A DNA stretch of 64,000 nucleotides from Microvirga soli (GTDB lineage: Bacteria > Pseudomonadota > Alphaproteobacteria > Rhizobiales > Beijerinckiaceae). This document shows, piece by piece, positions 37,040 through 59,944 of this stretch. Below the pieces are notes generated by a model. That model was not told where the DNA came from. It saw nothing but the letters and a program-made list of their open reading frames with translations, and searched no databases. The stretch lies in contig NZ_JAERQE010000022.1 of assembly GCF_016734765.1 (NCBI RefSeq), positions 1 through 64,000 of the forward strand, given 5' to 3'. The stretch's first letter is position 1. Every line of letters starts with the position of its first letter. A program made the position numbers and the translations under genes.

Positions 37040-37053
37040 TTGATCTGACGCAA
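37040..37053. promoter_or_regulatory. NNR-type box, pseudoazurin-ccoG-nnrS promoter
   Basis: TTGATCTGACGCAA fits TTG-N8-CAA. Its centre is 41.5 bases from the expected leftward transcription start (about 37005), and TATGAC lies exactly at -10 on the minus strand. Class II activation by the adjacent Crp/FNR protein is likely. Confidence 0.7.
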
Positions 37054-37306
37054 ACTGGGAGACGTTCTTCGTCGAAACCTCCGGAAGCGTGCTCCATTCC
37101 CATGACAAGGATGCGCGGCCTTGAGGTGCATCAATTCGGCAGGGTCGGCACCATGGTAAGTGATGCTGGGCAACGATTACGGTGATGGTCCTCGTCCAAG
37201 TCGGCCTGAGGTGGATCCGTGAGATCCACGCACGGCCGGGGCGTGATCTCCCTCCACCCTGAGATACCATTGACCTGACGCTCGAATGAGAAATGGAAGC
37301 CGCAGA

Positions 37307-38005
37307 ATGCCGAACCTGGACAAGTCGCTCGTGGCCGATCTTCCGATGTTCGCGGGCGTGGAGCCGGACGATCTCAACGACATCCTCCGGGAAGCGCAAT
37401 CGATCCGCTACCAGAAGGGGACGAGCGTCTTCCAGCAGGACGAGGAGGCACGCTCCTTCTTCATCCTTCTCCATGGGCACTTGAGGGTCATGAAGGTCAC
37501 ACCCGACGGGCAGCAGGTCGTGGTCCGTTACGTGACGCCCGGCGAGATCTTCGGGATCGCCATGGCCATGGGGCGCACCACTTACCCGGCCACGGCCCTC
37601 GCGGTCGTGGACAGCCTCGCCCTCGTTTGGCCGTCTGCGGCCTGGCCCCGCCTCGTCGCGAAGAATCCTTCGCTCGCCGTCAATACGATCCAGACCGTCG
37701 GAAGCCGCCTTCAGGACGCCCACACCCGGGTCGTCGAGATGTCGACCGAGCAGGTCGAGAGGCGCGTCGCCCACGCGCTCCTGCGCCTCGCCAAGCAGGC
37801 CGGGCGCAAGGGCGAGGATGGAATCCAGATCGATTTTCCGATCTCACGTCAGGACGTCGCGGAGATGACGGGAACCACGCTGCACACGGTCAGCCGCATC
37901 CTGAGCGCGTGGGAGGACCAGGGCCTCGTCGAGAGCGGACGGCAAAGGATCTCGATCCGCGACCCGCACAAGCTGTTCATCCTTGCCGAGCGCCCGTCGG
38001 ACTGA
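37307..38005 (+). CDS. Crp/FNR-family regulator of denitrification (NnrR/DNR type)
   Basis: A 232-residue protein: cyclic-nucleotide-binding-like beta-roll (about 10-125, LPMFAGVEPDDLNDIL, GEIFGIAMAMG), dimer helix, and a winged HTH (ISRQDVAEMTGTTLHTVSRILSAWEDQGLV). It lacks the N-terminal cysteine cluster of FNR, which fits the NO-sensing NNR/DNR groups that bind haem. ATG at 37307 preceded by GGAAG; an ATG at 37286 has no binding site. It lies in the middle of the island, and nine TTG-N8-CAA sites around it are its probable targets. Divergent from pseudoazurin. Confidence 0.88.
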   Translation: MPNLDKSLVADLPMFAGVEPDDLNDILREAQSIRYQKGTSVFQQDEEARSFFILLHGHLRVMKVTPDGQQVVVRYVTPGEIFGIAMAMGRTTYPATALAVVDSLALVWPSAAWPRLVAKNPSLAVNTIQTVGSRLQDAHTRVVEMSTEQVERRVAHALLRLAKQAGRKGEDGIQIDFPISRQDVAEMTGTTLHTVSRILSAWEDQGLVESGRQRISIRDPHKLFILAERPSD

Positions 38006-38017
38006 GTCCCTCTCACC

Positions 38018-38272
38018 TCATGTGGGCCAGCGGGCAGTAATGGGTGTGGACCCGTCCCGGGCTGGGGGAACGGACCCCTGCGCGATGATGGCCCTCAGGT
38101 CGGCCAGGAATTCCGCCTGATCGACGCCATGCTCGCGGCAGGCGTCGGCCACGGTGTGGAAGCAGGCAATCGGGCAGCCGACGCAATGCATCCTGTGGTT
38201 CAAGAAGGCCCGGATCGTCATGGGCCAGCGCCGCATGATGTCGTCGACGAGCTGGGTGGGTTCAAGGGGCAT
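38018..38272 (-). CDS. DUF1858 domain protein
   Basis: An 84-residue cytoplasmic protein with the DUF1858 pattern: RRWPMTIRAFLNHRMHCVGCPIACFHTV with the CxxC pair, then VADACREHGVDQAEFLADL. These small proteins accompany hybrid-cluster proteins and denitrification genes and may bind a metal or sulphur ligand. The ATG at 38272 is chosen: it has GGAGG five bases upstream, and the promoter set by the NNR box at 38338-38351 would start transcription near 38303, too close to a second ATG at 38305. It is divergent from the DUF2249-nnrU genes. Confidence 0.82.
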   Translation of the reverse strand: MPLEPTQLVDDIMRRWPMTIRAFLNHRMHCVGCPIACFHTVADACREHGVDQAEFLADLRAIIAQGSVPPARDGSTPITARWPT

Positions 38273-38337
38273 GATGGCCTCCGCGCCGATGGTTCGATTG
38301 GACATGCCCCATCCTGCCGGTTTTCCGCTGCCATTCT

Positions 38338-38351
38338 TTGCGCGGCATCAA
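38338..38351. promoter_or_regulatory. NNR-type box, DUF1858 promoter
   Basis: TTGCGCGGCATCAA fits TTG-N8-CAA. It is one of two sites in the divergent gap between the DUF1858 and DUF2249 genes; spacing to the DUF1858 ATG suits a class II promoter. Confidence 0.6.
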
Positions 38352-38386
38352 CGAGGCGAAGGAAGCGGACACGCCGGCGCCATTGT

Positions 38387-38400
38387 TTGAGGTGGAGCAA
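38387..38400. promoter_or_regulatory. NNR-type box, DUF2249-nnrU promoter
   Basis: TTGAGGTGGAGCAA fits TTG-N8-CAA and is almost the same as the norE site (39876-39889). It is the likely activator site for the rightward DUF2249-nnrU transcript; the leader would be about 165 bases. Confidence 0.6.
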
Positions 38401-38600
38401 AGAAGCGGAAGCGCTGATGGGCGAGGGTCCCGGCCGTCGAAGGAGGGCCGTCATCGCGGATGCGCGGGAGCGCTCCTACCCGGTTCGGGAATGCACCCTC
38501 CATCGAGGCCACCCTCGCCCGGGATCCGCAGGGGTACCCGGACCTCACCAACCGACCGCGGCCGGGACCTGCCCGGCTGCCTGCCAAGGAACGCTTGCCG

Positions 38601-38849
38601 ATGTGCAGTTGCAACGTCACCGAGACCGTCATCGATCTCCGCCAGATCATGCCGCGGATGCGGCACTCCCTGATCTTCGGAACCTTCGACCAGTTGGACG
38701 AGGGAGAGAGCTTCCTGCTCGTGAACGATCATGACCCGAGGCCCCTCCTCTACCAGTTCGGCGTCAACTGTCCGGGTGCCTTCGACTGGGACTACGTCGC
38801 GAAGGGACCCGATCTATGGAAGGTGCGCATCAGCCGCGAAGCGGCCTGA
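38601..38849 (+). CDS. DUF2249 domain protein
   Basis: An 82-residue small soluble protein: VIDLRQIMPRMRHSLIFGTFDQLDEGESFLLVNDHDPRPLLYQF reads as the DUF2249 start, then PGAFDWDYVAKGPDLWKVRISR, the typical TusA-like ending. The family is common in nor/nnr clusters; its exact work is unknown. ATG at 38601 has AAGGA ten bases upstream. The nnrU gene follows after 90 bases. Confidence 0.83.
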   Translation: MCSCNVTETVIDLRQIMPRMRHSLIFGTFDQLDEGESFLLVNDHDPRPLLYQFGVNCPGAFDWDYVAKGPDLWKVRISREAA

Positions 38850-38939
38850 GGCAGCATGCCCGCAAGCAGCCCCAACGCGGAGCCTCGAGCGGCTCCGCGT
38901 CACCTCTCCCTTGCCGGACACAACCCGGAAGCGTCGCCC

Positions 38940-39632
38940 ATGACCGAGTTTCACATTGCCATGGCCGTCTTCCTCGCGGCTCACCTGATACCGGCCAGCC
39001 CCGGCCTTCGGTCGCGCCTGATCGGCTTGATGGGAAGAGCGACCTACCTCACCGCCTACTCGCTCCTGTCCCTCGGACTGCTCGCATGGCTCACCCTGGC
39101 TGCCCAGCCGGCGGTGACGGTCCTGCTCTGGGATCCCGCTCCCTGGCAGCGGCATGTGCCCTTCCTCGCCATGCCGGTCGCCGCGTTCCTCCTGATCGCC
39201 GGTCTCGCGTGGCCCAATCCGCTCTCGATCTCGCTGCGGAGCGGCGAGGAGCCCGGCCCGATCGTCGCCGTCACGCACCATCCCGTCCTCTGGGGTTTCC
39301 TGATCTGGGCGGCATCGCACGTCCCGCCGAACGGAAGCCTCGTCGTGGTCCTCCTTTTCAGCGGGATGGCCGCGTTCTCGATCCTGGGTTTCTTCCTGCT
39401 TGACCTCAATGCCCGCAGGCGCATGGGCGCCAACCGTTGGCACGCCCGAAGCGCCGGGACGTCGATAATCCCGTTCACGGCACTATTGCAGTGGCGGTCT
39501 TCATGGACATCGCTGCGTCCCCAGAGGCTGCCCGCCCTGATCGCAGTCGGCGCCTGTGCCTGGTTCATCCTCCAGGGCCATGCGCTCCTCATCGGACCCG
39601 ACCCCCTCGCGGGCCTTCTCGCAATGCGGTAG
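38940..39632 (+). CDS. nnrU: NnrU family membrane protein
   Basis: A 230-residue protein with about six helices and the NnrU core (LIPASPGLRSRLIGLMGRATYLTAYSLLSL, RNPLS-like WPNPLSISL, VAVTHHPVLWGFLIWAASHV). NnrU is required for nitrite and NO reduction in Rhodobacter, and relatives act in haem or NO handling. The start ATG at 38940 gives the family N-terminus; an upstream open frame is not coding. It likely shares the NNR-driven transcript with the DUF2249 gene. Confidence 0.86.
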   Translation: MTEFHIAMAVFLAAHLIPASPGLRSRLIGLMGRATYLTAYSLLSLGLLAWLTLAAQPAVTVLLWDPAPWQRHVPFLAMPVAAFLLIAGLAWPNPLSISLRSGEEPGPIVAVTHHPVLWGFLIWAASHVPPNGSLVVVLLFSGMAAFSILGFFLLDLNARRRMGANRWHARSAGTSIIPFTALLQWRSSWTSLRPQRLPALIAVGACAWFILQGHALLIGPDPLAGLLAMR

Positions 39633-39658
39633 GCATCGCCAGTCCCGCGGGAACCTCG

Positions 39659-39814
39659 CTACTGGGTCAGGAACAGGGTGACCGCGATGGCTACCGACAT
39701 CGTCACCGCCGCGACGGTGCCGCTCAGGCGCAGCACGCCCATCCTGTGAAGCATCACCGCGAAGATGACGATGAGCGGTGTCGCCATCACCAGTCCGACC
39801 TGTGCATCCGTCAT
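39659..39814 (-). CDS. Small 51-residue membrane protein divergent from norE
   Basis: A short protein, VGLVMATPLIVIFAVMLHRMGVLRL then TVAAVTMSVAIAVTLFL, which is two hydrophobic helices with a short basic hinge and no signal cleavage site. AGGAGAG lies eight bases before the ATG. It is transcribed away from norE and shares the NNR box at 39876-39889; the predicted transcription start near 39841 lies 27 bases before the ATG. No family recognised; a small Nor assembly or stabilising subunit is possible. Confidence 0.6.
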   Translation of the reverse strand: MTDAQVGLVMATPLIVIFAVMLHRMGVLRLSGTVAAVTMSVAIAVTLFLTQ

Positions 39815-39875
39815 GATTGCTCTCTCCTGTTCATGGGTTTCCATCCCTCTATGGACCGGAACGTCAGTACGTTGT

Positions 39876-39889
39876 TTGAGGCAGCGCAA
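39876..39889. promoter_or_regulatory. NNR-type box, norEF / small membrane protein divergon
   Basis: TTGAGGCAGCGCAA fits TTG-N8-CAA. A single box serves both directions: leftward to the 51-residue protein, rightward to norE (TAAGGA at -10, 39912-39917). Confidence 0.65.
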
Positions 39890-39920
39890 CGAGAATGTCG
39901 GATGGGCGCCGTAAGGATCG

Positions 39921-40517
39921 ATGTCGGCAAGTACGGAATGGCTGGAAACGATGGACGCTGCGCGAGAGGACAGGCCCTGGGGGGCGCTGTCCGACCTGCC
40001 GGGACACCCGATGATGTGGGTGCTCATCCTGACTGAGGTCGTCACCTTCGGACTTCTTCTTGCGACGTTCGCCGTCACGGGAGCCGTTCGGCCCGGCGTC
40101 TTCGCGGCCGGCCGGGCGCAGCTCGATCCCGTCCTCGGCGGCGTGAACACCATCGTCCTGATCACCAGCGGTTGGCTGGCCGCATTGGCCGTCGAGGCCC
40201 GCATGATCGAACGCCGGAGGTCGGCGCGGCTGCTGCTCGCCGGAGCGGCGGCCCTGGGCTGCGTCTTCATCGCCGTCAAGGTCGTGGAATACGCGGCCAA
40301 GGTCCAGGCCGGCATCGGCCTGGAGACCGACACGTTCTTCACGCTCTACTTCCTGATCACCGGATTCCACCTTCTCCACGTCGTGCTCGGGATCGTCATG
40401 ATCGCGGCAGTCGTGTTGCACGACAGCCCGGAGAACCTGAAGACCGGCACGGCCTTCTGGCACATGGTCGACCTCGTCTGGGTCGTGATGTACCCGCTGG
40501 TCTACCTGGTCGGATGA
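39921..40517 (+). CDS. norE: NorE, cytochrome c oxidase subunit III-like
   Basis: A 198-residue protein with five helices: HPMMWVLILTEVVTFGLLLATFAV, IVLITSGWLAALAVEA, LYFLITGFHLLHVVLGIVM (oxidase III motif) and WHMVDLVWVVMYPLVY. NorE is not part of the purified NO reductase but is needed for full activity. ATG at 39921 has AGGA, but the rightward transcription start predicted from the NNR box (about 39924) makes the ATG at 39951 (188 residues) a serious alternative. norF follows four bases later. Confidence 0.88.
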   Translation: MSASTEWLETMDAAREDRPWGALSDLPGHPMMWVLILTEVVTFGLLLATFAVTGAVRPGVFAAGRAQLDPVLGGVNTIVLITSGWLAALAVEARMIERRRSARLLLAGAAALGCVFIAVKVVEYAAKVQAGIGLETDTFFTLYFLITGFHLLHVVLGIVMIAAVVLHDSPENLKTGTAFWHMVDLVWVVMYPLVYLVG

Positions 40518-40521
40518 CGCC

Positions 40522-40797: not shown

Positions 40798-40819
40798 CGA
40801 GGGCACTCCCCTCCGGAGC

Positions 40820-40833
40820 TTGTGCCAGAGCAA
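40820..40833. promoter_or_regulatory. NNR-type box, norCBQD promoter
   Basis: TTGTGCCAGAGCAA fits TTG-N8-CAA. TACGTT lies at the expected -10 (40855-40860), giving a start near 40868 and a 156-base leader before norC. Confidence 0.7.
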
Positions 40834-41023: not shown

Positions 41024-41476
41024 ATGGCTGAAGTCCTCACCAAATCGGCGGCAAGAAACGTGTTCTACGGGGGCTCGTTCTTCTTCTTCGCCATCTTCGT
41101 GGGCCTGACCGCCCACAGCCACTACTACATGAACACCACATCGACGGACGTCTCGACGCTGACGTCCTCCGTCGCCCGCGGCAAGCACGTGTGGGAGAGG
41201 AACTCCTGCATCAACTGCCATTCGATCCTCGGCGAAGGCGCCTACTTCGCCCCCGAGCTCGGCAACGTCTGGGACCGCTACGGCGGCAGGGAGGATCCGG
41301 CAGGAGCTCGCGAGACCCTGAAGGCCTGGATGGGCGCACAGCCCACCGGGATCGAGGGCCGGCGCCAGATGCCGCAGTTCAACCTGACCGACCAGGAACT
41401 CAACGATCTCGCAGACTTCCTGGAATGGACCGACCGCATCAAGACCCAGAACTGGCCACCCAACAAAGCCGGCTGA
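41024..41476 (+). CDS. norC: Nitric oxide reductase subunit C
   Basis: A 150-residue membrane-anchored cytochrome c: one N-terminal helix (VFYGGSFFFFAIFVGL), haem motif CINCH (Cys62, Cys65, His66) and the distal Met in RRQMPQFNL. It carries electrons to NorB on the periplasmic side. AAGGA precedes the ATG; norB starts 16 bases later. Confidence 0.95.
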   Translation: MAEVLTKSAARNVFYGGSFFFFAIFVGLTAHSHYYMNTTSTDVSTLTSSVARGKHVWERNSCINCHSILGEGAYFAPELGNVWDRYGGREDPAGARETLKAWMGAQPTGIEGRRQMPQFNLTDQELNDLADFLEWTDRIKTQNWPPNKAG

Positions 41477-41492
41477 GAGGGGAATCGTCATC

Positions 41493-42839
41493 ATGAAATA
41501 CCAGACGCAAAAGGTGGCCCTGCTCTATTTCTACGGAGCGCTGGCCCTGTTCATCGCCCAGGTCCTGTTCGGCGTCCTCGCCGGCACGATCTATGTCCTG
41601 CCCAATACCCTGTCCGAGCTTCTGCCGTTCAACGTCGTCAGGATGATCCACACCAACGCGCTGATCGTGTGGCTGCTGATCGGGTTCATGGGCGCGACCT
41701 ACTACCTGATCCCGGAGGAGACCGAGAACGAGCTCTTCAGCCCGCTTCTTGCGAAAATCCAGTTCTGGATGTTCTTCGGCGCAGCAGGCGTCGCGGTGGT
41801 GGGATACCTGTTCAAGATCCACGAGGGCCGCGAGTTCCTGGAGCAGCCCTTCATCATCAAGGTCGGCATCGTCGTCGTGTGCCTCATGTTCCTGTTCAAC
41901 ATCACCATGACGGCGCTCAAGGGACGCAAGACGGTGGTGACCAACATCCTGCTCTTCGGGCTGTGGGGCGTGGCGATCTTCTTCCTGTTCTCCTTCTACA
42001 ACCCCTCGAACCTTGCGGTGGACAAGATGTACTGGTGGTACGTCGTGCACCTGTGGGTCGAGGGCGTGTGGGAGCTGATCATGGCCTCCGTGCTCGCCTT
42101 CCTGATGATCAAGCTCAACGGCATCGACCGCGAGGTCGTCGAGAAGTGGCTCTACGTCATCGTCGGCATGGCGCTGTTCTCCGGCATCCTGGGCACCGGC
42201 CACCACTTCTACTGGATCGGCGCTCCCGGCTACTGGCAGTGGATCGGCTCGCTGTTCTCGACGCTTGAGGTCGCACCCTTCTTCACCATGGTCATCTTCA
42301 CCGTCCAGATGACCTGGAAGGCGGGCCGCAAGCACCCGAACCGCGCGGCCCTGCTGTGGTCGATCGGCTGCTCGGTGATGGCATTCTTCGGCGCGGGCGT
42401 CTGGGGCTTCCTGCACACCCTATCGTCGGTGAACTACTACACCCATGGCACGCAGGTCACCGCCGCCCATGGCCACCTCGCCTTCTTCGGTGCGTACGTG
42501 ATGCTGAACCTCGCCGTGATGACCTATGCCATGCCGCAGATCCTTGGCCGCGCTCCGTACAATCAGATGCTGTGCATCGTTAGCTTCTGGATCATGTGCA
42601 CGGCGATGTCGGTGATGACCTTCGCGCTCACCTTCGCGGGCGTCATCCAGGTCCACCTGCAACGCGTGCTCGGGCAGTCGTACATGGACGTCCAGGATCA
42701 GCTCGCGCTGTTCTACTGGATCCGCCTCGGCTCCGGCGTGTTCGTGCTGATCTCGGCGATCATGTTCGTCTACGCGGTGTTCGTTCCCGGCCGCGAGAAG
42801 GCCCCGCGCCTGACGCAAGGTCTCCAGCCTGCCGAGTAA
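41493..42839 (+). CDS. norB: Nitric oxide reductase subunit B
   Basis: A 448-residue, 12-helix haem-copper oxidase relative. Metal-ligand regions are visible: RMIHTNALIVW (haem His), HLWVEGVWEL with the NOR glutamate, TGHHFYWIGAP (FeB histidines), and HGTQVTAAHGHLAFFGAY. With NorC it reduces NO to N2O. The length and C-terminus match cNorB rather than the quinol-type fusion. norQ begins 63 bases downstream. Confidence 0.97.
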   Translation: MKYQTQKVALLYFYGALALFIAQVLFGVLAGTIYVLPNTLSELLPFNVVRMIHTNALIVWLLIGFMGATYYLIPEETENELFSPLLAKIQFWMFFGAAGVAVVGYLFKIHEGREFLEQPFIIKVGIVVVCLMFLFNITMTALKGRKTVVTNILLFGLWGVAIFFLFSFYNPSNLAVDKMYWWYVVHLWVEGVWELIMASVLAFLMIKLNGIDREVVEKWLYVIVGMALFSGILGTGHHFYWIGAPGYWQWIGSLFSTLEVAPFFTMVIFTVQMTWKAGRKHPNRAALLWSIGCSVMAFFGAGVWGFLHTLSSVNYYTHGTQVTAAHGHLAFFGAYVMLNLAVMTYAMPQILGRAPYNQMLCIVSFWIMCTAMSVMTFALTFAGVIQVHLQRVLGQSYMDVQDQLALFYWIRLGSGVFVLISAIMFVYAVFVPGREKAPRLTQGLQPAE

Positions 42840-42902
42840 GCCCTCCGGGGCGGCCGGCCCGTGGTTGCCCCGAACTCCCCACCATGTTTTGAGGATTGAT
42901 CG

Positions 42903-43715
42903 ATGAAGTCCCTTCTCCACGCCGTGCCGCAATTCGCCGTCGAACTTCCCTACTACGTCCCTGCCGGCAACGAGTGCGTCCTCTTCGAGCTCGCCTGGCG
43001 CAAGCGCCTGCCGCTGCTCCTGAAGGGTCCGACGGGCTGCGGCAAGACCCGGTTCGTGGCGTACATGGCATCCCGCCTCGGCCTGCCGCTGCATACCGTG
43101 TCCTGCCATGACGATCTCACCGCCGCCGACTTGACGGGACGTTACCTTCTCAAGGGCGGCGACACGGTCTGGGCTGATGGCCCGCTGACCTGCGCCGTGC
43201 GCGAGGGCGGCATCTGCTACCTCGACGAGATCGTGGAGGCGCGCAAGGACGTGACCGTCGTGCTCCATCCGCTGACGGACGACCGCCGCATCCTTCCCCT
43301 CGACCGCACGGGCGAGGAATTGCAGGCGCCGGACTCCTTCATGCTCGTGGTCTCCTACAACCCTGGTTACCAGACCCTGCTCAAGTCCCTGAAGCCTTCG
43401 ACCCGCCAGCGCTTCGTCGCCATAGAGTTCGACTTCCTTCCCATCGATCAGGAGATCGCCGTCGTTGTCTCGGAGAGCGGTTTGTCGGCGGAGCGCGTTC
43501 GTCCCCTTCTCCTGCTGGCCCGCCGTCTGCGCGCGCTGAAAGGCCAGGACCTGGAGGAAGGCGTCTCGACGCGGCTGCTGGTCTACTGCGCCTCCCTGAT
43601 CGCGGCGGGCGTCAATCCGGAGGAGGCAGTCACCGCGACCATGATCGAGCCGCTCACCGACGATCTCGACGTCAAGAAAGCCCTGCTCGAGGTCGCCCGC
43701 GCGACGCTCGCCTGA
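42903..43715 (+). CDS. norQ: MoxR-type AAA ATPase NorQ
   Basis: A 270-residue AAA+ protein: Walker A LKGPTGCGKTRFVAYMA, Walker B GICYLDEIVEARKDV and sensor I SYNPGYQTL. With NorD it inserts non-haem iron into NorB. It follows norB after 63 bases and precedes norD by 14. Confidence 0.93.
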   Translation: MKSLLHAVPQFAVELPYYVPAGNECVLFELAWRKRLPLLLKGPTGCGKTRFVAYMASRLGLPLHTVSCHDDLTAADLTGRYLLKGGDTVWADGPLTCAVREGGICYLDEIVEARKDVTVVLHPLTDDRRILPLDRTGEELQAPDSFMLVVSYNPGYQTLLKSLKPSTRQRFVAIEFDFLPIDQEIAVVVSESGLSAERVRPLLLLARRLRALKGQDLEEGVSTRLLVYCASLIAAGVNPEEAVTATMIEPLTDDLDVKKALLEVARATLA

Positions 43716-43729
43716 CCTGGAGACCCGCC

Positions 43730-45643
43730 ATGCTCGACTTCCTGGAACTCGAGGAGACCGTCGGCCAGTTCTGGCACCGTCTGGTCGGACGCGCGGTGAC
43801 CTATCCGCACCATCCCGGGCTTGGTGTCTCGCTCGACGAAGTCCGCGCCTCCCTCCCGGTCTTCTTTCGCGGCCTCGGCGGCGAGGCCGGCGTGCAGTTG
43901 GCCGGCACCGCGTCCCGAGCCTCGTCCCACCGCTTGAACCTTCTCCAACGGATCGGCGTCGCCGAGGAGCGGCTAGAGCAGCCGGGGCGCAATGCGGCCA
44001 CCCTCTTCCTCCCACCGAAGATCGAGATCTTTCCTTCGAGCGCGCTGAACCGCTCGCTCTATTTCTGGCTGGCGGCCTACTTCGCCTATGTCCCGACCGA
44101 AACGATCAACGAGGCCGATCCGCTGCGCCGGGATCTTCTGGTTCTCCGGAGGGTGCAGGAGACGGTCGCCACCGTTCTGGCGGAGTGCCCCGGTCTGACA
44201 AGGACCTACACCGAGCTTTGCGCTGCAATGCGCGAGGCCCGGCCTCAGCGGCCCCTCCCGGCATCCGAAGGCAAGGTTGAGAGCATTGTCCTCTCGCTTT
44301 TGGGCGACAACACCGCGACGCTGCCTCCCCTTTGGGACATGATGATTGACGACGCCGGTTTGCCGTTTCAAGCCCCTGCGGGCTATCAGCCGTTCCTGCC
44401 GGTTCCGCTCTGGGGCGACACCTGGACCCGCACAGCCGGGGCGGCAAACCGCAACGGCGATGAGCCTGCGGGACAGGGCGACCTTGCCGCATCGGACACG
44501 CGCAAGCGCTTCGCAGCACGGCGCGAAGCGGACCAGGCCCAGCGCAGCGATCCGTTCATCCTGAACCGCTTCGAGAAGATCCTGGCCATGGCGGAGATGG
44601 TCAACGTCAACCGGCCCTCGGACGATGACGAGGACGAAAACGCCGAGAAAGCCTTGGAAGAGATGGAGGAGATTCCGCTCTCCAATCACAAGGGCAAGCC
44701 GGCGACCAAGCTCAAGTTCGACCTCGACCTGCCCCCCGAAGCCGTGGACACCACGAGCCTGACGGCGGATCTGACCTATCCGGAGTGGGACTACACCCGC
44801 AAGGCCTATCTGCCGGGTCACTGTCGCGTGCTGGCAGCCCGGGCCTCGGATGAGGGTGAGGCCTGGGAGGCTGACGACGAGGCCCGTCGGCTGATCCGAC
44901 GTGTCCGCCGGCAGTTCGAGGCGCTGCGGCCGAAGCATGAGATCCTGCGGGCGCAGCCGGATGGTGAGGAAATCGACATCGACGCACTGGTGCGCGCCCG
45001 CAGCGACCTGCTTTCGGGGGGATCCGGCTCTGAGCGCGTTCACCTCGCCAGCAGGCGTCAGGCTCATGATCTCGCCGTGACGCTCTTGGTCGACGTCTCG
45101 CTTTCGACGGATGCATGGATCGACAACCGACGCGTGCTCGACGTGGAAAAGGAGGCGCTGTTGGTGCTGGCACACGGACTGGCCGCCTGCGGCGACTCCC
45201 ATTCCATCCTGACCTTTACCTCGCGCCGCCGTTCCTGGGTGCGTGTGGAGACTGTCAAGGACTTCGACGAACCCATGAGCCAGGCCGTCGAGCGGCGCAT
45301 CGCGTCCCTGAAGCCGGGCTACTACACCCGCATCGGTGCGGGAATCCGCCATGCAACGGCCAAACTGGCGGAGCGTCCGAACCGCCAGCGCCTGTTGCTT
45401 GTGCTGACCGATGGCAAGCCGAACGACGTCGACTACTACGAGGGCCGCTTTGGCATCGAGGACACCCGCCGCGCCGTCATGGAAGCTCGCCGCGCCGGGA
45501 TCACCGTCTTCGGCGTGACGGTGGACCGGGAAGCGCAGTCGTACTTCCCGACGCTCTTCGGCCGCGGCGGCTACGCAATCGTCGGCGAGATAGCGAGGCT
45601 GCCCTCGGCCCTGCCGTCCATTTACCGCCAACTCCTCAGGTAG
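43730..45643 (+). CDS. norD: NorD, VWA-domain protein
   Basis: A 637-residue protein with an acidic linker (DDDEDENAEKALEEMEEI, around residue 303-320) and a C-terminal von Willebrand A domain (TLLVDVSLSTDAWI with the MIDAS DxSxS, and LVLTDGKPNDVDYY). It partners NorQ in maturing NO reductase. It ends the norCBQD operon; a strong terminator follows at 45659-45696. Confidence 0.93.
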   Translation: MLDFLELEETVGQFWHRLVGRAVTYPHHPGLGVSLDEVRASLPVFFRGLGGEAGVQLAGTASRASSHRLNLLQRIGVAEERLEQPGRNAATLFLPPKIEIFPSSALNRSLYFWLAAYFAYVPTETINEADPLRRDLLVLRRVQETVATVLAECPGLTRTYTELCAAMREARPQRPLPASEGKVESIVLSLLGDNTATLPPLWDMMIDDAGLPFQAPAGYQPFLPVPLWGDTWTRTAGAANRNGDEPAGQGDLAASDTRKRFAARREADQAQRSDPFILNRFEKILAMAEMVNVNRPSDDDEDENAEKALEEMEEIPLSNHKGKPATKLKFDLDLPPEAVDTTSLTADLTYPEWDYTRKAYLPGHCRVLAARASDEGEAWEADDEARRLIRRVRRQFEALRPKHEILRAQPDGEEIDIDALVRARSDLLSGGSGSERVHLASRRQAHDLAVTLLVDVSLSTDAWIDNRRVLDVEKEALLVLAHGLAACGDSHSILTFTSRRRSWVRVETVKDFDEPMSQAVERRIASLKPGYYTRIGAGIRHATAKLAERPNRQRLLLVLTDGKPNDVDYYEGRFGIEDTRRAVMEARRAGITVFGVTVDREAQSYFPTLFGRGGYAIVGEIARLPSALPSIYRQLLR

Positions 45644-45715: not shown

Positions 45716-47068
45716 TCACACGGCGCGGCTGTGCGTTCGCCCCGACGCTCCGAGATAGACGTCAAACGCGGATGCGACGGTCCTGACCAGGAAACGCGTG
45801 TCGTCGTTCACCGACAGCAGGTTTCCGTCGAAACGGATGATACCGTCCTGCTCCAGCACTCGAAGCCGGGGAATTGCTTGCAGGATGGTCTCCGGAGCGG
45901 TGCCGTGCCGGCTGCACACCTCCTGCACGTCGACCCGGAAGTCGCACATCACCCGCTCGATCAGGTCGGCCCTGAGACGGTCGTCCGCAGTCAGCGCATA
46001 GCCCTTCGCCGTCCCCAGCTCTCCTCGCGAGATGCGTTCGGCATAGCGTCCCAGCACGACCTCGTTCTGGGCGTAGCCCTGCGTCAGCCGTCCGATGGCG
46101 GAAGCGCCGAAGCCGATCAGCACATCGCTCGGATCGGTGGTGTAACCCTGGAAGTTGCGGTGCAGGACGCCGTCGGCCTGGGCCTGCACCATCGAATCCT
46201 CCGGCAGCGCGTAATGATCGAGCCCGATCCGGCGGTATCCGGCCTGGATCAATGCCCCGGCAATCGCCTCGGCCTGCTCGTAGCGGGCAGCGCCGTTCGG
46301 CAGTGCGGACTCGTCGATCCTGCGCTGGTGCTTCTTGAACGTCGGGACATGCGCATAGCCGAAGACGGAGAAGCGCTCGGGGCGGAGTTGGATGCTCTGC
46401 CGCACGGTCTCGATGCAGGACTCGACCGTCTGGTGCGGCAGGCCATAGATGAGATCGAAGTTGACCCCGCGGATGCCCGCCTCCCTCAGGCCAGTCGTGG
46501 CCCTCGCCGTCTGCTCGAAGCTCTGGATGCGGTTGATCGCGCGCTGCACGACCGGATCGAAGCTCTGCACGCCGAGGCTGGCACGGGTCACGCCCGCCTC
46601 GCCCAGGGCGGCGGTCATGGTGCGGGTGAGCGTGCGCGGATCGATCTCGACGGCGATCTCCGCGCCGTCACCAAGGGAGAACCTCTGCCGCATGAGATCG
46701 ATCAGGCCGATGAACTCGGCGGGTTCCATGATGGTCGGCGTGCCTCCACCGAAGTGCACGTGACCCACCGGCAGTGGAGCGCTCAGGCGGTCGGCGGCGA
46801 GGCCGATCTCACGGCGGAGGACGTCCAGATAGTCGACGATGGGTGCGTCCCGCTGCGTGATCGTGGTGTGACAACCGCAATACCAGCACATGGAGCGGCA
46901 GAAGGGCACGTGAAGGTACAGCGATGCCGTCGTTCCGCCCGGGATGGCGGAGAGCCACTCCCCGTAAGCCTCATGCCGTATGGCGTCCGAGAACTGCGGC
47001 GCTGTCGGGTAGCTCGTGTAGCGGGGAAGCCGCTCCTCCCCGTATCGCGCTCTCAGGTCGTCTCTCAT
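45716..47068 (-). CDS. hemN: Oxygen-independent coproporphyrinogen III oxidase
   Basis: A 450-residue radical SAM enzyme, with PFCRSMCWYCGC (CxxxCxxC for the 4Fe-4S cluster), VHFGGGTPTIM and GFGASAIG. It makes protoporphyrinogen without oxygen and supplies haem for the nitrate, nitrite and NO enzymes. ATG at 47068 (GGGAG eight bases upstream) is chosen; an ATG-like start near 47134 would lie before the transcription start (about 47125) set by the NNR box. Convergent with norD and divergent from nirK. Confidence 0.93.
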   Translation of the reverse strand: MRDDLRARYGEERLPRYTSYPTAPQFSDAIRHEAYGEWLSAIPGGTTASLYLHVPFCRSMCWYCGCHTTITQRDAPIVDYLDVLRREIGLAADRLSAPLPVGHVHFGGGTPTIMEPAEFIGLIDLMRQRFSLGDGAEIAVEIDPRTLTRTMTAALGEAGVTRASLGVQSFDPVVQRAINRIQSFEQTARATTGLREAGIRGVNFDLIYGLPHQTVESCIETVRQSIQLRPERFSVFGYAHVPTFKKHQRRIDESALPNGAARYEQAEAIAGALIQAGYRRIGLDHYALPEDSMVQAQADGVLHRNFQGYTTDPSDVLIGFGASAIGRLTQGYAQNEVVLGRYAERISRGELGTAKGYALTADDRLRADLIERVMCDFRVDVQEVCSRHGTAPETILQAIPRLRVLEQDGIIRFDGNLLSVNDDTRFLVRTVASAFDVYLGASGRTHSRAV

Positions 47069-47159
47069 CGCGATGGCTCCCATTGGAGACGCTGTCCACG
47101 TCGGGTGCGTCGGGTCGATGGCTTGCGAGTACATCTACGGCCGTTTGTCGCCGCCTTCA

Positions 47160-47173
47160 TTGAGCTTGCTCAA
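47160..47173. promoter_or_regulatory. NNR-type box, hemN promoter (perfect palindrome)
   Basis: TTGAGCTTGCTCAA is a perfect 14-bp palindrome. Its centre lies 41.5 bases from the predicted leftward start (47125), with TAGATG at -10. Confidence 0.75.
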
Positions 47174-47217: not shown

Positions 47218-47231
47218 TTGCGTTGCAACAA
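47218..47231. promoter_or_regulatory. NNR-type box, nirK promoter
   Basis: TTGCGTTGCAACAA fits TTG-N8-CAA. TACAGC lies at the expected -10 (47253-47258), giving a start near 47266 and a 54-base leader before nirK. Confidence 0.75.
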
Positions 47232-47319
47232 ATTACCCCTGCCCCAGGAGTGTACAGCTTAAGCATCCGATGACGGACCAATTCCGATCCGCCAGGCGGT
47301 CCCACGAAGGAGGGTTACG

Positions 47320-48432
47320 ATGAAAGCTCTGAAGATCTCGGGACGCCGGCCGCTGCTTGCGACCGTTGCGGTTCTCGCCCTGGGCGCGGCGGCCCTGCTC
47401 GCCCAGCCCCTGCCCGCCAATGCCGGCGACAAGTACGCCGCTGCCACACCGCACGTGCACAGCCACTCGGATGCCAGCGGCACCGTGGCGGCCCCAATCA
47501 ACGTGGTGCGCCTGCCTACCGACTTGCCCGGTCCCATCGGCAAGCGTGGCCCGCAGCGCGTGAAGGTCGACCTGGACACCACAGAGGTAACGGGCCAGTT
47601 GGCGGACGGGACGACCTACCACTACTGGACCTTCAACAACAAGGTTCCGGGTCCCTTCGTCCGGGTGAGGGTTGGCGACACGGTCGAGGTCAAGCTGAAG
47701 AACGACGACGACAGCCTCATGATGCACAACGTCGACTTCCATGCGGTCACCGGCCCCGGCGGCGGCGCCAAGGCCACGGAAGCGGCTCCCGGCGAGACCC
47801 GCGGCTTCGAGTTCAAGGCGCTCAACCCCGGCCTCTACGTCTATCACTGCGCAACACCCACGGTCGCCCAGCACATCGCCAACGGCATGTACGGACTGAT
47901 CCTGGTGGAGCCGGAAGAGGGCTTGCCGAAGGTCGACCGTGAGTTCTACGTCATGCAGGGCGAGATCTACACCGAGCAGGCCTACGGCACGAAGGGCCAT
48001 GCCGAGGAGAGCATCGACAAGCTCCTCAGCGAGCGCCCCGAGTACTTCATCTTCAACGGCAGCACCGACGCCCTGAAGAAGAACCCGCTCAAGGCGAACG
48101 TCGGCGAGATGGTGCGGATCTACTTCGGCGTCGGCGGCCCGAACTACACCTCGTCCTTCCACGTGATCGGCGAGATCTTCGACAAGGCCTATCCGATGGC
48201 TTCGCTCAGCTCGCCGCTGAAGGACGTCCAGACAATCACCACGCCTCCCGGAGGAGCCAGCGTCGTCGACTTCAAGCTCGAGGTGCCCGGCAACTACATC
48301 CTGGTCGACCATGCCCTGAGTCGCGTCGAGCGCGGACTGGCCGGCATCCTCCAAGTCGAGGGCCCGCAGAACGAGGCGGTCTTCAAGGACTACAACCCGC
48401 AGAAATCGGCACAGTCGACCGGCGGCCACTAG
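47320..48432 (+). CDS. nirK: Copper-containing nitrite reductase
   Basis: A 370-residue periplasmic trimeric enzyme reducing nitrite to NO. Signal peptide ends near PANAG (about 36). Type 1 copper ligands His136, Cys177, His185 and Met190; type 2 site His141, His176 and a C-terminal domain His (SSFHVIG); catalytic Asp139 in HNVDFH. A His-rich N-terminal HVHSHSD (about 45-51) after the signal may bind copper. GGAGG precedes the ATG. Pseudoazurin (36.5 kb) is its likely donor. Confidence 0.96.
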   Translation: MKALKISGRRPLLATVAVLALGAAALLAQPLPANAGDKYAAATPHVHSHSDASGTVAAPINVVRLPTDLPGPIGKRGPQRVKVDLDTTEVTGQLADGTTYHYWTFNNKVPGPFVRVRVGDTVEVKLKNDDDSLMMHNVDFHAVTGPGGGAKATEAAPGETRGFEFKALNPGLYVYHCATPTVAQHIANGMYGLILVEPEEGLPKVDREFYVMQGEIYTEQAYGTKGHAEESIDKLLSERPEYFIFNGSTDALKKNPLKANVGEMVRIYFGVGGPNYTSSFHVIGEIFDKAYPMASLSSPLKDVQTITTPPGGASVVDFKLEVPGNYILVDHALSRVERGLAGILQVEGPQNEAVFKDYNPQKSAQSTGGH

Positions 48433-53923: not shown

Positions 53924-53927
53924 GAAT

Positions 53928-54478: not shown

Positions 54479-54491
54479 CGCCAGGTTCCCG

Positions 54492-54656: not shown

Positions 54657-55172
54657 TCGGAGATGCTCAGGAGGTAGATCGCGGGTTACCGACAACGCTT
54701 AAGCTCCATTGAGGTTCCGGCTTAGGACGAGGCTGGGACAGGCCACGACGCTGACTCGACGGCGAACCTCAAGGAGGCTCGTGGATGGGGCATGGGCAGC
54801 CTTGCCTGCTTCTTCCGGCAGGATGCGGCTTGCCCTTGAGTGAATCTGCCAGGGGCGTCGGGAGCGCTCCACTCAGGAATTGTACCTAGGTAGCCGACAG
54901 TGGAGGCATGCGGATGCCCTGATCGCGTACGCGGCAACGCGACCACTGAAATGGTTCTGGTCGGGAACGCCCCTCATCCCGCAGGATTGAGGCGCCGGTA
55001 CCGACGACAAATGCCCAAGGTCAGGTGTGGTGATCCGCGCGAATTAGCCGGAAACCATATACCAGACATACATGCGTCCTGTTTGCGCGATGTCAAAGAC
55101 GACCTTCATCCGATGGGCCATGGTCGCACTATCGTTAGCCGTCACGCGTCAATGCAATCCGCAGGGTCCCTA
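54657..55172. other. Divergent control region of nap and the NnrS-like gene
   Basis: 516 bases between the nap operon (left) and the NnrS-like gene (right). Only one NNR-type box was found, at 55083-55096, placed for the rightward gene. No credible gene is inside. Confidence 0.5.
55083..55096. promoter_or_regulatory. NNR-type box, NnrS-like gene promoter
   Basis: TTGCGCGATGTCAA fits TTG-N8-CAA. It would set a rightward start near 55131; the -10 is weak. It probably drives the NnrS-like gene and the copper genes after it. Confidence 0.6.
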
Positions 55173-56360
55173 ATGTGCGCCGTATCCTCATCCAGCACGG
55201 GCTCGCATGACGCCTCGGTTCCGCAAGGATCCACAAGGGGAACCAAGGGGATCCGCCTTGTCCTGCTGGCCTTCGGAGTCCTTGCCCTGATCGCTGGCCT
55301 GTGCGGAGCGCTGTGGCGGGTCGGTTGGACGCTGCCCCACGGGTCATCGCTTGCCACCGTGCACGGGCCCCTGATGATCTCGGGTATGTTCGGAACGCTG
55401 ATCAGCCTGGAGCGCGCCGTCGCCCTCGGTCGCCAATGGGCCTACGCAGCCCCGGCTCTCGCTGGTGTCGGATCACTTGCCTTAGTCGCAGGCGCTCCGG
55501 TTGAATACGGGGCTGGCGCCTACGTGGCGGCCGCGGCGGCGCTGGCAGGGGCATCGCTGTTGGCCACGATCCGGCAGCCCGCCCTTTCCACGGGCGCCCT
55601 CCTGTTCGGTGCGCTGGCATGGCTCGCCGGAAACGTGCTCTGGCTTGCAGGCTTGGCGGCATCCGATGCGGCGGGCTGGTGGATGACCTTCCTGGTCGTC
55701 ACCGTTGTCGGCGAACGCATGGAACTCAGCCAGTCGATGCCGCAGCGGCGTGGCGGCGAGGCGTTGTTCCTGTTCGCCGTCGGCCTGCTCATCGTTGGCG
55801 CACGCAATGGGCTCCCGACGGGAAACGGCGCGATCCTGTTCGGGATCGCCCTGCTCGTCACCGCCATCTGGCTGCTGCGGCATGACACTGCCCGCAAGGA
55901 CGTACGCGGAACGGGGCAGGATCGCTACACGGCCGCGTGCATGCTCGCAGGGCATGCATGGATGGCCGTGGCTGGCCTCGTCCTGGTCGCCTCCCCGCCT
56001 GAGGGCACCTTCGGGTACGACATCGCGCTGCACGCGGTCCTGATCGGGTTCGTCCTGTCGATGGTGTTCGGGCACGCGCTCACTATCCTGCCAACGCTTG
56101 CTCAAATCCGGGTGCACTATACCCTGCTTCTTTACGGCCCCTTGCTCCTTCTTCATGCGTCAGTGGCCCTGCGCGTCGGAAGCGGCATCGCCGGCTGGGA
56201 TGCCGGGCGGAAGGGGAGCGGCATCGTCACGCTTGCGTCACTCATGACCTTCTTCGTCAGCCTGGTTCTGTCCCGGCGGCAGGATCGGGTCGCTTCCGTG
56301 TCCAATGGGATCCCTGGGGCCGGGACCGCCATTGATCCGATTGCCTGCGAACCGAGGTAG
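55173..56360 (+). CDS. NnrS-like multi-span membrane protein
   Basis: A 395-residue protein of about 11-12 helices. HGPLMISGMFGTLISLERAVALGRQWAY and HAVLIGFVLSMVFGHALTILPTLAQIRVHYT, seen in summary, carry His residues in membrane context, as in NnrS and haem-binding relatives. ATG at 55173 with AGGG six bases upstream fits the promoter; earlier in-frame ATGs (such as 55113) precede the predicted transcription start. Eight bases separate it from the next gene. Family assignment is tentative. Confidence 0.6.
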   Translation: MCAVSSSSTGSHDASVPQGSTRGTKGIRLVLLAFGVLALIAGLCGALWRVGWTLPHGSSLATVHGPLMISGMFGTLISLERAVALGRQWAYAAPALAGVGSLALVAGAPVEYGAGAYVAAAAALAGASLLATIRQPALSTGALLFGALAWLAGNVLWLAGLAASDAAGWWMTFLVVTVVGERMELSQSMPQRRGGEALFLFAVGLLIVGARNGLPTGNGAILFGIALLVTAIWLLRHDTARKDVRGTGQDRYTAACMLAGHAWMAVAGLVLVASPPEGTFGYDIALHAVLIGFVLSMVFGHALTILPTLAQIRVHYTLLLYGPLLLLHASVALRVGSGIAGWDAGRKGSGIVTLASLMTFFVSLVLSRRQDRVASVSNGIPGAGTAIDPIACEPR

Positions 56361-56368
56361 CAGGGGCC

Positions 56369-56755: not shown

Positions 56756-56796
56756 CCGGAACGACACGACAACCCTCCTACAGATAGGACAAGACC

Positions 56797-57330: not shown

Positions 57331-57370
57331 CAAGGGAGCGGGGTCCCGTCACACGGAACCCCGCGAATCC

Positions 57371-58972
57371 ATGATGCGTGCCATCATCATCACGCTCTGG
57401 CTGGCGCTCGCCGGACTGTGGGGCAGCGATGCAGCCCTCGCCCATGCGGCGCTGGTCGAGACACATCCCGCGGACGGCGCCGTCGTCGAGGACGGGCCAG
57501 CCGCCGTGCGCCTGCGCTTCAATGAGCCCGTATCGCCCCTGGTCATCGGCCTGACCGATGCACGAGGCCGGTCGCATCCCGGCCTCAGGACCATCGCCCG
57601 CAACGAGTTGCTCGAGATATTCCTGCCGCCGGACCTGCCGAGGGGCACCCACGTCCTGAGCTACCGCGTGAATTCCGGCGACGGCCATCCGATCGGCGGA
57701 GCCGTCGTGTTCTCGATCGGCGCACCGACCGAGGCCGGCAACCGCTCCGGCGAGACAGGAACGGGAGAGGGCGCCGGCACCGTCCTCTGGCTGGCACGGG
57801 TAACCCTCTACCTCGGCCTGTTCGCCGGAGTGGGAGGCGCGTTCTTCCGTGCCTGGCTCGCCCACGGCCTGCCGGGGGTTGCGGTGGATCGCGTGCTCCA
57901 TGCCTCCATTGCGGTGGGCATCGTCGCTTCCGCTGCATCGCTGGGCTTGCAGGGTATCGATGCCTTGGGGGGTACCCTCGCCGACATGGCAGCTCCGGCC
58001 GCGTGGGCGGCGGGATGGGGAACCTCCTACGGCCAAACGACAGCCGCCGGAACGGCGGCGCTCATCCTTGGATGGCTTTCGATGCACGGACCCGATGGCT
58101 GGCGAAGGGCAGGAAGCGTGTCGGGGATGGGCGCGGTCGGACTGTCCTTCGCCTTGAGCGGCCATGCCAGCGCAGCGGATCCGCAATGGCTGACGCGTCC
58201 CGCAGTCTTCGTCCATGCCGTCGGCATCGCCTACTGGATCGGGGCCCTCATTCCGCTTGCGATCATCATCCGCAAGGCGCCGGGAGCGGCGTTCCCGGTC
58301 GTACGCCGCTTCTCCACGGGTGCGCTCGTTACGGTCGCGGCCATTACGCTCGCCGGGATTGCCCTGGCCGTGATCCAGGTGGAGTCCACCGCGAACCTGA
58401 TCGGCACCGCCTATGGCCAGGTTCTTGTCGCCAAGACCCTGCTGGCAGGCGCATTGCTCGGCTTGGCCGCCCTGAACCGTCGCTGGCTCACGCCTGCCAT
58501 GACCGCCCCGGAAGGCTCCGGCGCCAAGTGGCTGGTGCGCTCGGTCAAGGCCGAGATCGTCCTTTGCCTCGCAATCCTCGCGCTGGTCGGACTCTGGAGG
58601 TTCACCCCGCCTCCAAGGGCGCTCGCATCCTCCGCGGAGGCTTCGAGGCCCGCGAGCGTTCACCTGCACTCGAACAGGCTCATGGCCCAGGTCACGATGT
58701 CTCCCGGCAGGGTCGGCCCCACGCGAGCGAGGATCGTCGTCGCGACGGGACAGGCGGAACCGATCGACGCGAAGGAAGTGACCCTCCGGCTCGCACGGCC
58801 CGATGCCGGCATCGAGCCCATCGTCCGCAAGGCGAGGAAGGTGGGGTCCTGCGCGTGGGAGGTGGATTCCCTGGTCCTGCCCCTGGCGGGGGCCTGGAAG
58901 GCGACGGTGGATGTCCTCGTCGACGACTTCGAGAAGGTCAGCCTCGGAGGATCCCTGACCGTGAAGCCGTGA
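57371..58972 (+). CDS. CopC-CopD fusion, copper uptake protein
   Basis: A 533-residue protein. Signal peptide about residues 1-24, then a CopC domain (HAALVETHPADGAVVEDGPAAVRLRFNEPVSPL, with N-terminal His as a copper ligand; GTHVLSYRVNSGDGHPIGG), then eight membrane helices of CopD (SLGLQGIDALGG, RRFSTGALVTVAAITLAGIAL) and a further soluble domain (about 430-533). Such fusions import copper into the cytoplasm or hold it in the periplasm. Follows ycnI after 40 bases; likely feeds copper to NirK and NosZ. Confidence 0.85.
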   Translation: MMRAIIITLWLALAGLWGSDAALAHAALVETHPADGAVVEDGPAAVRLRFNEPVSPLVIGLTDARGRSHPGLRTIARNELLEIFLPPDLPRGTHVLSYRVNSGDGHPIGGAVVFSIGAPTEAGNRSGETGTGEGAGTVLWLARVTLYLGLFAGVGGAFFRAWLAHGLPGVAVDRVLHASIAVGIVASAASLGLQGIDALGGTLADMAAPAAWAAGWGTSYGQTTAAGTAALILGWLSMHGPDGWRRAGSVSGMGAVGLSFALSGHASAADPQWLTRPAVFVHAVGIAYWIGALIPLAIIIRKAPGAAFPVVRRFSTGALVTVAAITLAGIALAVIQVESTANLIGTAYGQVLVAKTLLAGALLGLAALNRRWLTPAMTAPEGSGAKWLVRSVKAEIVLCLAILALVGLWRFTPPPRALASSAEASRPASVHLHSNRLMAQVTMSPGRVGPTRARIVVATGQAEPIDAKEVTLRLARPDAGIEPIVRKARKVGSCAWEVDSLVLPLAGAWKATVDVLVDDFEKVSLGGSLTVKP

Positions 58973-58991
58973 GCCGCCCGGAAGTCGGCAT

Positions 58992-59864
58992 CTAGCCGTG
59001 CAGCTCGGGCAGGTCGTCCCTCAGCCATGCAAGGCGGGAGATGGCGTCTCCGGCCAGGGACTGCATACGGTCCAGCGTGGCCTCGTCGCCGGCGAGGTCT
59101 CCGACCTCGAGGTAACGCTCGGCCAGCAACTCGGCCAGCACCACCGGATCCTCCGGGAGCCTCTCTCCCGCCCCTACGCCCTTGAGGGGAACGGATGCAC
59201 GGTCGAGTTCCCGGGCGGTGCGCCTCGCTCCCTCGATGAAGTCCGTCAGCCGTGTCCGTTCCGGTTCAGGGGACTGGTGCGTGAGAGGCTCGAGAAGGTC
59301 GGCGAGATGCCGCTCGAGGTCGGCGAGATCCGTCGCACCCTCACCGTCGCCTCCACCCGTGCGCCTGCGTTCGGTATGGAAGGCCTGCCGGCGCTCCCGC
59401 CGGAGGATCGCCACATGTCCCAGCTCCTCGTGCGCCATGGTCTCGGCGGCCTGCCTGACGTCATCCGTCTTCGCATGGGCAGCGACGTAGCTCCAGAAGG
59501 CGAAGGCGCGCTCCTCGTTGCGCACCGCCATCGAAAGGGCACGGTAGGCATTGAACAGCCGGGGATGCGCCGTCGCGGAGCCCTCGTCATCGAACGTCTC
59601 CGAGGCGTTCCAGCGGATCGTCGCCGGATCGACGCCCTTGCCGTTCGTCCTCCGCGACCAGTCATGGACACTCTCGAGGTGATGCCTTTCGCCGGCGGAC
59701 AGGCGGTCGAACACGTCCGCCAGTGCCGGATCGCCCTCATGCCTCATCCTTTCGGCGATCTCGGCATAGCGCGTGGCGGCCTCGTCCTCCATGGCGGCAG
59801 CGAGGGCCATCAGCTCCTCGATCGACTCCACGGTCCCGGCGGGCTCGTTCCTCAAAAGAGACAT
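58992..59864 (-). CDS. Rubrerythrin-like ferritin-fold protein
   Basis: A 290-residue protein with a di-iron four-helix pattern: AAAMEDEAATRYAEIAERM, SAGERHHLESVHDWS, AVRNEERAFAFWSYVAAHA and ETMAHEELGHVAILRRER hold the expected Glu and ExxH ligands. A second, Glu/Arg/Leu-rich part (about 190-290) is helical and unassigned. GGAGA precedes the ATG at 59864. It is divergent from nosR and shares one NNR box (59931-59944); the predicted start near 59896 is 32 bases before the ATG. Perhaps protection from nitrosative stress or an iron store. Confidence 0.72.
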   Translation of the reverse strand: MSLLRNEPAGTVESIEELMALAAAMEDEAATRYAEIAERMRHEGDPALADVFDRLSAGERHHLESVHDWSRRTNGKGVDPATIRWNASETFDDEGSATAHPRLFNAYRALSMAVRNEERAFAFWSYVAAHAKTDDVRQAAETMAHEELGHVAILRRERRQAFHTERRRTGGGDGEGATDLADLERHLADLLEPLTHQSPEPERTRLTDFIEGARRTARELDRASVPLKGVGAGERLPEDPVVLAELLAERYLEVGDLAGDEATLDRMQSLAGDAISRLAWLRDDLPELHG

Positions 59865-59930
59865 CTCGTTCTCCGCGTCATGCAGGAATTTGGTACGCAG
59901 GGTTGATATGGCAACTTGGGTCCGTCCGGT

Positions 59931-59944
59931 TTGACACACATCAA
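59931..59944. promoter_or_regulatory. NNR-type box, nosR / rubrerythrin-like divergon
   Basis: TTGACACACATCAA fits TTG-N8-CAA. A single box lies between nosR and the rubrerythrin-like gene; TATCAA fits the leftward -10 and CAGGAT the rightward -10. Confidence 0.65.

What the first reader, a model, noticed from the sequence alone, without database searches (positions are those of the whole stretch)
37040..59944. A compact NNR regulon: nine TTG-N8-CAA boxes around one Crp/FNR gene
Nine 14-bp sites (37040, 38338, 38387, 39876, 40820, 47160, 47218, 55083, 59931) of the form TTG-N8-CAA lie upstream of pseudoazurin, DUF1858, DUF2249-nnrU, norEF, norC, hemN, nirK, the NnrS-like gene and nosR. Several have a -10 at the distance expected for class II activation. 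This makes one regulator (37307-38005) the likely switch for nearly the whole island and allows start codons to be checked against promoters.
Basis: partly seen in the sequence, partly recalled or inferred. Interest (0 to 1): 0.75.

Follow-up and report, generated by a model that had tools for sequence, protein, structure and literature searches.

The report
Denitrification island with conserved NnrR boxes
A soil bacterium's denitrification genes carry real, well conserved switch sites of a known kind, but the neighbouring regulator is probably not the only switch and is itself probably turned on by an oxygen-response regulator.

Summary
All nine TTG-N8-CAA boxes are there. With a missed tenth (37121) they fall in 2,648 intergenic bases where 0.36 are expected. 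In 28 stretches from 21 genomes of the same genus (Microvirga), a box lies within 300 bases upstream of eight target genes in 123 of 123 regions, against 6 of 137 control regions. A -10 "TA" sits where class II activation (box centre at -41.5) requires, in most groups far above the 1% background. This is an NnrR-type denitrification regulon: a known kind.

"One regulator" is not supported. The genome has a second, diverged denitrification island with two more NnrR copies (79 and 82% identical, same recognition helix) and a fixLJ-fixK cluster. Box 37121 is FixK/FNR-like (TTGA-N6-TCAA) and faces nnrR at class II distance in 12 of the 14 closest copies; boxes before ccoN and ccoG have the same form. 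Best reading: FixLJ-FixK (oxygen) raises nnrR, and NnrR (NO) drives the island.

Corrections: 59931 fits the divergent rubrerythrin-like gene better than nosR; 39876 also faces a 51-aa membrane protein; nap operon genes lack boxes; the 55173 gene has no NnrS match. Nothing was tested experimentally.

The parts
37040..37053 (-). box for pseudoazurin; predicted +1 at 37005
   Evidence: box in 24 of 24 paz upstream regions; TA at -12/-11 in 20 of 24
37121..37134 (+). missed box, FixK/FNR type (A at position 4 of both half-sites), facing nnrR; predicted +1 at 37169
   Evidence: same type in 12 of 31 nnrR copies, all among the 14 closest; TA at -12/-11 in 11 of 12; one of 29 such sites in the genome against 3 for the control
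37307..38005 (+). nnrR, Crp/Fnr regulator of the NnrR type
   Evidence: PF00027 and PF13545 above cut-off; no NCBIfam equivalog above cut-off; recognition helix HTVSR
38018..38272 (-). DUF1858 protein (start 38272 preferred to 38305)
   Evidence: PF08984 47.0 bits, cut-off 32.2; paralogue on C11 starts at the matching Met
38338..38351 (-). box for DUF1858; predicted +1 at 38303
   Evidence: at -60 to -90 in 21 of 22 upstream regions; TA at -12/-11 in 12 of 21
38387..38400 (+). box for DUF2249-nnrU; predicted +1 at 38435
   Evidence: 6 of 14 DUF2249 upstream regions within 300 bases; 18 boxes at the matching place when measured from DUF1858; no TA at -12/-11 (0 of 6)
38601..38849 (+). DUF2249 protein
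   Evidence: PF10006 94.3 bits
38940..39632 (+). NnrU
   Evidence: PF07298 139.5 bits
39659..39814 (-). conserved 51-aa membrane protein, unnamed, divergent from norE
   Evidence: found in 15 stretches; 264 of 408 substitutions at codon position 3; no Pfam or NCBIfam match
39876..39889 (.). box shared by the 51-aa gene (-) and norE (+); predicted +1 at 39841 and 39924
   Evidence: 15 of 15 and 11 of 11; -10-like CATAGA on one side, TA on the other
39951..40517 (+). norE (start 39951 preferred to 39921)
   Evidence: COX3 family; predicted +1 lies downstream of 39921; C11 paralogue starts at the matching Met
40820..40833 (+). box for norC; predicted +1 about 40868
   Evidence: 15 of 15; TA one base off -12/-11, 12 of 15 within one base
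41024..45643 (+). norC, norB, norQ, norD (names by position and recall)
   Evidence: ORFs; conserved order
45716..47068 (-). hemN (start 47068 or 47083 preferred to 47134)
   Evidence: TIGR00538 above cut-off
47160..47173 (-). box for hemN, FixK/FNR-like half-sites; predicted +1 at 47125
   Evidence: 10 of 10; TA at -12/-11 in 10 of 10; A/A in 6 of 10
47218..47231 (+). box for nirK; predicted +1 at 47266
   Evidence: 15 of 15 at -92.5 to -96.5; TA within one base in 15 of 15
47320..48432 (+). nirK, copper nitrite reductase
   Evidence: TIGR02376 319.5 bits, cut-off 296.3
55083..55096 (+). box for the membrane protein gene at 55173; predicted +1 at 55131
   Evidence: same place in 3 stretches only (G000, G031, G032); C11 paralogue has an aligned box before the DUF59-type gene ahead of it
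   Evidence: no Pfam or NCBIfam match
58992..59864 (-). rubrerythrin-like protein
   Evidence: PF02915 50.7 bits, cut-off 22.8
59931..59944 (.). box between the rubrerythrin-like gene (-) and nosR (+); predicted +1 at 59896 and 59979
   Evidence: 11 of 11 on both sides; -10 score at the expected place ranks 1st for the rubrerythrin side and 2nd for nosR
60105..62482 (+). nosR (start uncertain)
   Evidence: NF046105 821 bits, below its cut-off of 1000 for the part from 60170

Best explanation
The island is an NnrR-type denitrification regulon of class II promoters with two tiers. The boxes are binding sites for Crp/Fnr-family dimers whose centre lies 41.5 bases before the transcript start. Most boxes have at least one half-site that is not TTGA (NnrR form, TTGcg-like) and are read by NnrR-lineage proteins in response to nitric oxide; at 39876, and probably 59931, one symmetric box serves two divergent promoters. 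The box before nnrR itself (37121), and in part those before hemN and the rubrerythrin-like gene, have the FixK/FNR form (TTGA-N6-TCAA) and are probably read by FixK under low oxygen. Shown here: sites, conservation, spacing, the two box forms, the regulator genes. Inferred: which protein binds which box, the NO and oxygen signals, activation rather than repression, and sharing of boxes among the three NnrR copies.
For: Placement and conservation. Of 64 possible 3-base dyads with an 8-base spacer TTG is far ahead (134 of 149 against 39 of 149 for the next). -10 at the class II place. Second island with diverged copies keeps aligned boxes. nirK co-occurs with nnrR in 18 of 19 genomes and norB in 17 of 19 (Fisher P 3e-9 and 2e-7, not corrected for relatedness). 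Box forms: nirK and norC have no TTGA half-site in 14 of 15 each, 37121-type boxes have two in 12 of 12 of the closest copies. TTGA-form sites are 29 in the genome against 3 for the control and include the sites before ccoN and ccoG. FixJ passes its NCBIfam cut-off. Recognition helix HTVSR in the three NnrR copies, ETVSR in FixK. Published: NnrR consensus ctTTGcgnnnncgCAAag (PMC1274295, passages) and a FixLJ-FixK2-NnrR cascade in Bradyrhizobium (PMC6710368, passages).
Against: In Bradyrhizobium diazoefficiens FixK2 transcribes nnrR and nnrS in vitro from one shared box, and the box listed for nnrR is TTGCGCTATCGCAA, so box form does not cleanly tell FixK from NnrR sites. hemN boxes are pure TTGA form in only 6 of 10 and rubrerythrin/nosR boxes in 7 of 11. 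FixK and FixL are best hits but below their NCBIfam cut-offs (232 of 300, 602 of 850). A TTGYG-N5-GCAA pattern is not enriched genome-wide (36 forward, control 45). One norE copy with full upstream has no box (L215). norB occurs without a detected nnrR in 2 genomes, one of which (G046) keeps the norC box.
Confidence: 0.7

Rival explanations
1. One reading: the single local regulator (37307-38005) reads all the boxes and switches the island.
For: It lies in the middle of the island; in 12 of 21 nnrR-bearing genomes of the genus only one copy is found.
Against: Two further copies with the same recognition helix in this genome; its own box is of another type; FixK present.
Confidence: 0.12
2. Box 37121 is an autoregulation site read by NnrR, with no FixK step.
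For: NnrR may tolerate TTGA half-sites, since most other boxes have one; nnrR transcript falls in a Bradyrhizobium nnrR mutant.
Against: 37121-type boxes have two TTGA half-sites in 12 of 12, whereas paz, norE, norC, nirK, DUF1858 and DUF2249-side boxes have two in 0 of 104 (24, 11, 15, 15, 21, 18); the form matches the ccoN and ccoG boxes.
Confidence: 0.25
3. FixK acts directly at most boxes and NnrR only at a few such as norC.
For: In Bradyrhizobium napEDABC, nirK and nosRZDFYLX depend directly on FixK2, and NnrR acts directly on norCBQD (PMC6710368 passages); FixK2 consensus there is TTGA/C-N6-T/GCAA.
Against: nirK boxes lack TTGA half-sites in 14 of 15; nnrR and nirK co-occur in 18 of 19 genomes.
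Confidence: 0.15
4. Chance matches of a short pattern in an AT-richer intergenic sequence.
For: The pattern has no genome-wide enrichment.
Against: Conservation, fixed spacing and -10 position.
Confidence: 0.01

Closest known systems
NnrR regulon of alphaproteobacteria (Rodionov 2005, PMC1274295; passages and section 8 seen)
   Same: Crp/Fnr activator of the NnrR branch next to nir, nor, nnrS, hemN; half-site TTGcg; targets nir, nor, nnrS, hemN and a gene co-transcribed with nor
   Different: Here three near copies in one genome, two islands, boxes often with one TTGA half-site, boxes also before a rubrerythrin-like gene and a 51-aa membrane protein
FixLJ-FixK2-NnrR cascade of Bradyrhizobium diazoefficiens (PMC6710368; passages seen)
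   Same: FixK tier above nnrR; nnrR, DUF1858, hemN and nirK genes near one another with boxes; one box shared by two divergent promoters (nnrR/nnrS), shown there in vitro
   Different: nnrR box there is TTGCGCTATCGCAA; here TTGAGGTGCATCAA. In 69 of 79 named nnrR loci examined no TTGA-form box lies within 300 bases; the 10 that have one are all Microvirga
Multiple Dnr regulators in Dinoroseobacter shibae (PMC5398030; listing and start of abstract only)
   Same: One Fnr-type and three Dnr regulators in a cascade
   Different: Dnr branch, not NnrR; not compared in sequence here

Membership tests
NnrR regulon | Crp/Fnr regulator of the NnrR branch | tested here: inconclusive
   Cyclic-nucleotide-binding and Crp HTH domains above cut-off; homologues beside nir and nor in many alphaproteobacteria; no characterised NnrR was placed in the tree and no NCBIfam equivalog passes
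NnrR regulon | TTGcg-like dyad before nir, nor and accessory genes | tested here: met
   consensus from PMC1274295
NnrR regulon | response to nitric oxide | not testable with these tools
   needs expression data
Class II Crp/Fnr promoter | box centre at -41.5 with a -10 at fixed distance | tested here: met
   sequence geometry only; no transcript start was measured
FixLJ-FixK-NnrR cascade | fixL, fixJ and fixK genes present | tested here: met
   L193; FixJ above cut-off, FixL and FixK best hits below theirs
FixLJ-FixK-NnrR cascade | FixK site in the nnrR promoter | tested here: inconclusive
   FixK/FNR-form box at class II distance; binding not tested
One-regulator island (reader) | no second regulator able to read the boxes | tested here: not met
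   two near copies, same helix

The most novel reading that the evidence does not exclude
One genome keeps three old NnrR lineages on two diverged denitrification islands that share one box code but have different inputs: the window copy has a FixK-form class II promoter, one C11 copy has NnrR-form boxes upstream, the other has no box within 300 bases. In the window lineage the nnrR promoter has been rewired from an NnrR-form box to a FixK-form box, putting oxygen control above NO control.
Probability: 0.45. Interest if true: 0.5.

Novelty: new member of a known kind. Interest (0 to 1): 0.35.

Why it matters
It gives a well supported promoter map for denitrification in Microvirga, where the one paper found by searching 'Microvirga' with 'NnrR' is a general review. 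It shows that a genome can keep two islands and three near-identical regulators, so single knock-outs may mislead, and it offers a natural pair of promoter types for testing how FixK and NnrR tell their sites apart.

Tried and rejected
Tried: genome-wide enrichment of the bare motif (none) and of TTGYG-N5-GCAA (none). The -10 scan of the window alone is weak site by site and needed orthologues. The spacing control TTG-N12-CAA is also raised (55 of 149); I did not work out why. The control regions are mostly inside operons, hence largely coding sequence. Rows left out: G036's second nnrR copy (31 of 32 copies examined); one extra box in G006 was dropped by hand, and spacing ranges for the groups were set; one of 80 loci (L100) had too little upstream; seven of eight norE rows were cut by locus ends and not counted. 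19 of the 29 FixK-form sites were in stretches I fetched, and two of those lie inside predicted genes. norB, norQ, norD, napB, C, D, F and the nos genes after nosR were named by position and recall.

Full report
Observation. The nine sites are real and an intergenic tenth, 37121, was missed. The pattern by itself is common in the genome (842 sites, 826 for the reversed control), but 10 of the 11 sites in the stretch lie in 2,648 intergenic bases where 0.36 are expected.

Conservation. The regulator was found in 21 of 48 genomes of the genus at E of 1e-60 or better; the named relatives are Microvirga. I took 28 stretches from these 21 genomes, located orthologues and searched 300 bases upstream. 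Eight target genes have a box in 123 of 123 regions; with DUF2249 (6 of 14) and the gene at 55173 (5 of 12) the figure is 134 of 149. Control regions gave 6 of 137. Among 64 dyads with the same spacer the next best reached 39 of 149; among spacers 4 to 13, N12 reached 55 and N5 20, the others 9 or fewer, all of 149. Further loci added later also have boxes: norC 8 of 8 (one already counted), nirK 11 of 11 and hemN 7 of 7 (some already counted).

Promoter geometry. Averaged over orthologues, the -10 score peaks 36 bases after the start of the box, where -12 falls if the box centre is at -41.5. This offset ranks first of offsets 20-55 in 8 of 12 promoter groups, second in 3, and norC peaks one base away. 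TA at -12/-11 is seen in 10 of 10 hemN, 20 of 24 paz and 11 of 12 nnrR (37121) promoters against 1% elsewhere; five groups (DUF2249, 51-aa gene, 55173 gene, rubrerythrin-like, nosR) mostly use other letters. The predicted starts fall inside the longest ORFs of norE, hemN and DUF1858; the C11 paralogues begin at later Met codons, so 39951, 47068 or 47083, and 38272 are the better starts.

Which gene does a box serve? Box 59931 keeps -71.5 to -77.5 to the rubrerythrin-like gene in 10 of 11 and -214.5 to -239.5 to my nosR reference point, and the -10 on the rubrerythrin side scores better; nosR may still be served. Box 39876 faces norE and, on the other side, a 51-aa membrane protein present in 15 stretches with third-position-biased substitutions (264 of 408). 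Shared boxes have a tested precedent at nnrR/nnrS in Bradyrhizobium.

Which regulator? The genome holds 27 Crp-type HTH proteins above the Pfam cut-off. Two are close copies of the window regulator, on contig C11 (82% and 79%), within a second denitrification island whose genes are about 58 to 99% identical to the window's and whose boxes align with the window's in several intergenic regions. In a 48-row tree each of the three copies pairs with its own counterpart in G007 (support 96/93, 100/100, 100/93), so they are separately inherited. All three share HTVSR; FixK and one other regulator have ETVSR. Two more distant relatives (37% and 39%) lie after the nos genes of each island.

Box forms. 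Box 37121 has A at position 4 of both half-sites. So do 12 of 31 nnrR-proximal places, all within the 14 copies at 83% identity or more; of the other 19, 8 have no box and 11 another form. Strict FixK/FNR-form sites number 29 in the genome against 3 for the control and include sites before ccoN and ccoG and one near fixK. Boxes of nirK and norC lack TTGA half-sites in 14 of 15 each. Published work links the residue at CRP position 181 with the base at that place (PMC1274295, section 8); mapping H and E here to that position is from my alignment and recall. Against a clean split, FixK2 of Bradyrhizobium accepts TTGA or TTGC.

Verdict. It is a new member of a known kind with an interesting two-tier, three-copy arrangement.

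Noticed in passing
window 39659-39814 (-): Unannotated 51-aa membrane protein, conserved between nnrU and norE, also found in 11 of 80 named loci; role unknown.
   Followed up: partly
window about 60061-60072: TTCTGTTCAGAA dyad upstream of nosR, also present in the C11 island alignment; could be another control site.
   Followed up: no
L046:12323-12790: Rrf2-family regulator (closest to RirA and NsrR models, below both cut-offs) inside the C11 island only, with a TTG-N8-CAA site just upstream.
   Followed up: no
L046:14663-14676: FixK-form box between hemN and nirK on C11, present in 6 of 10 hemN regions but absent from the window.
   Followed up: partly
window 16433-16446: TTGTTTGTATACAA box-like site upstream of a GntR-like gene, outside the island.
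   Followed up: no
L193:4005-7350: fixL, fixJ, a receiver-only protein and fixK in a row downstream of cco genes, with a FixK-form box at 6102.
   Followed up: partly
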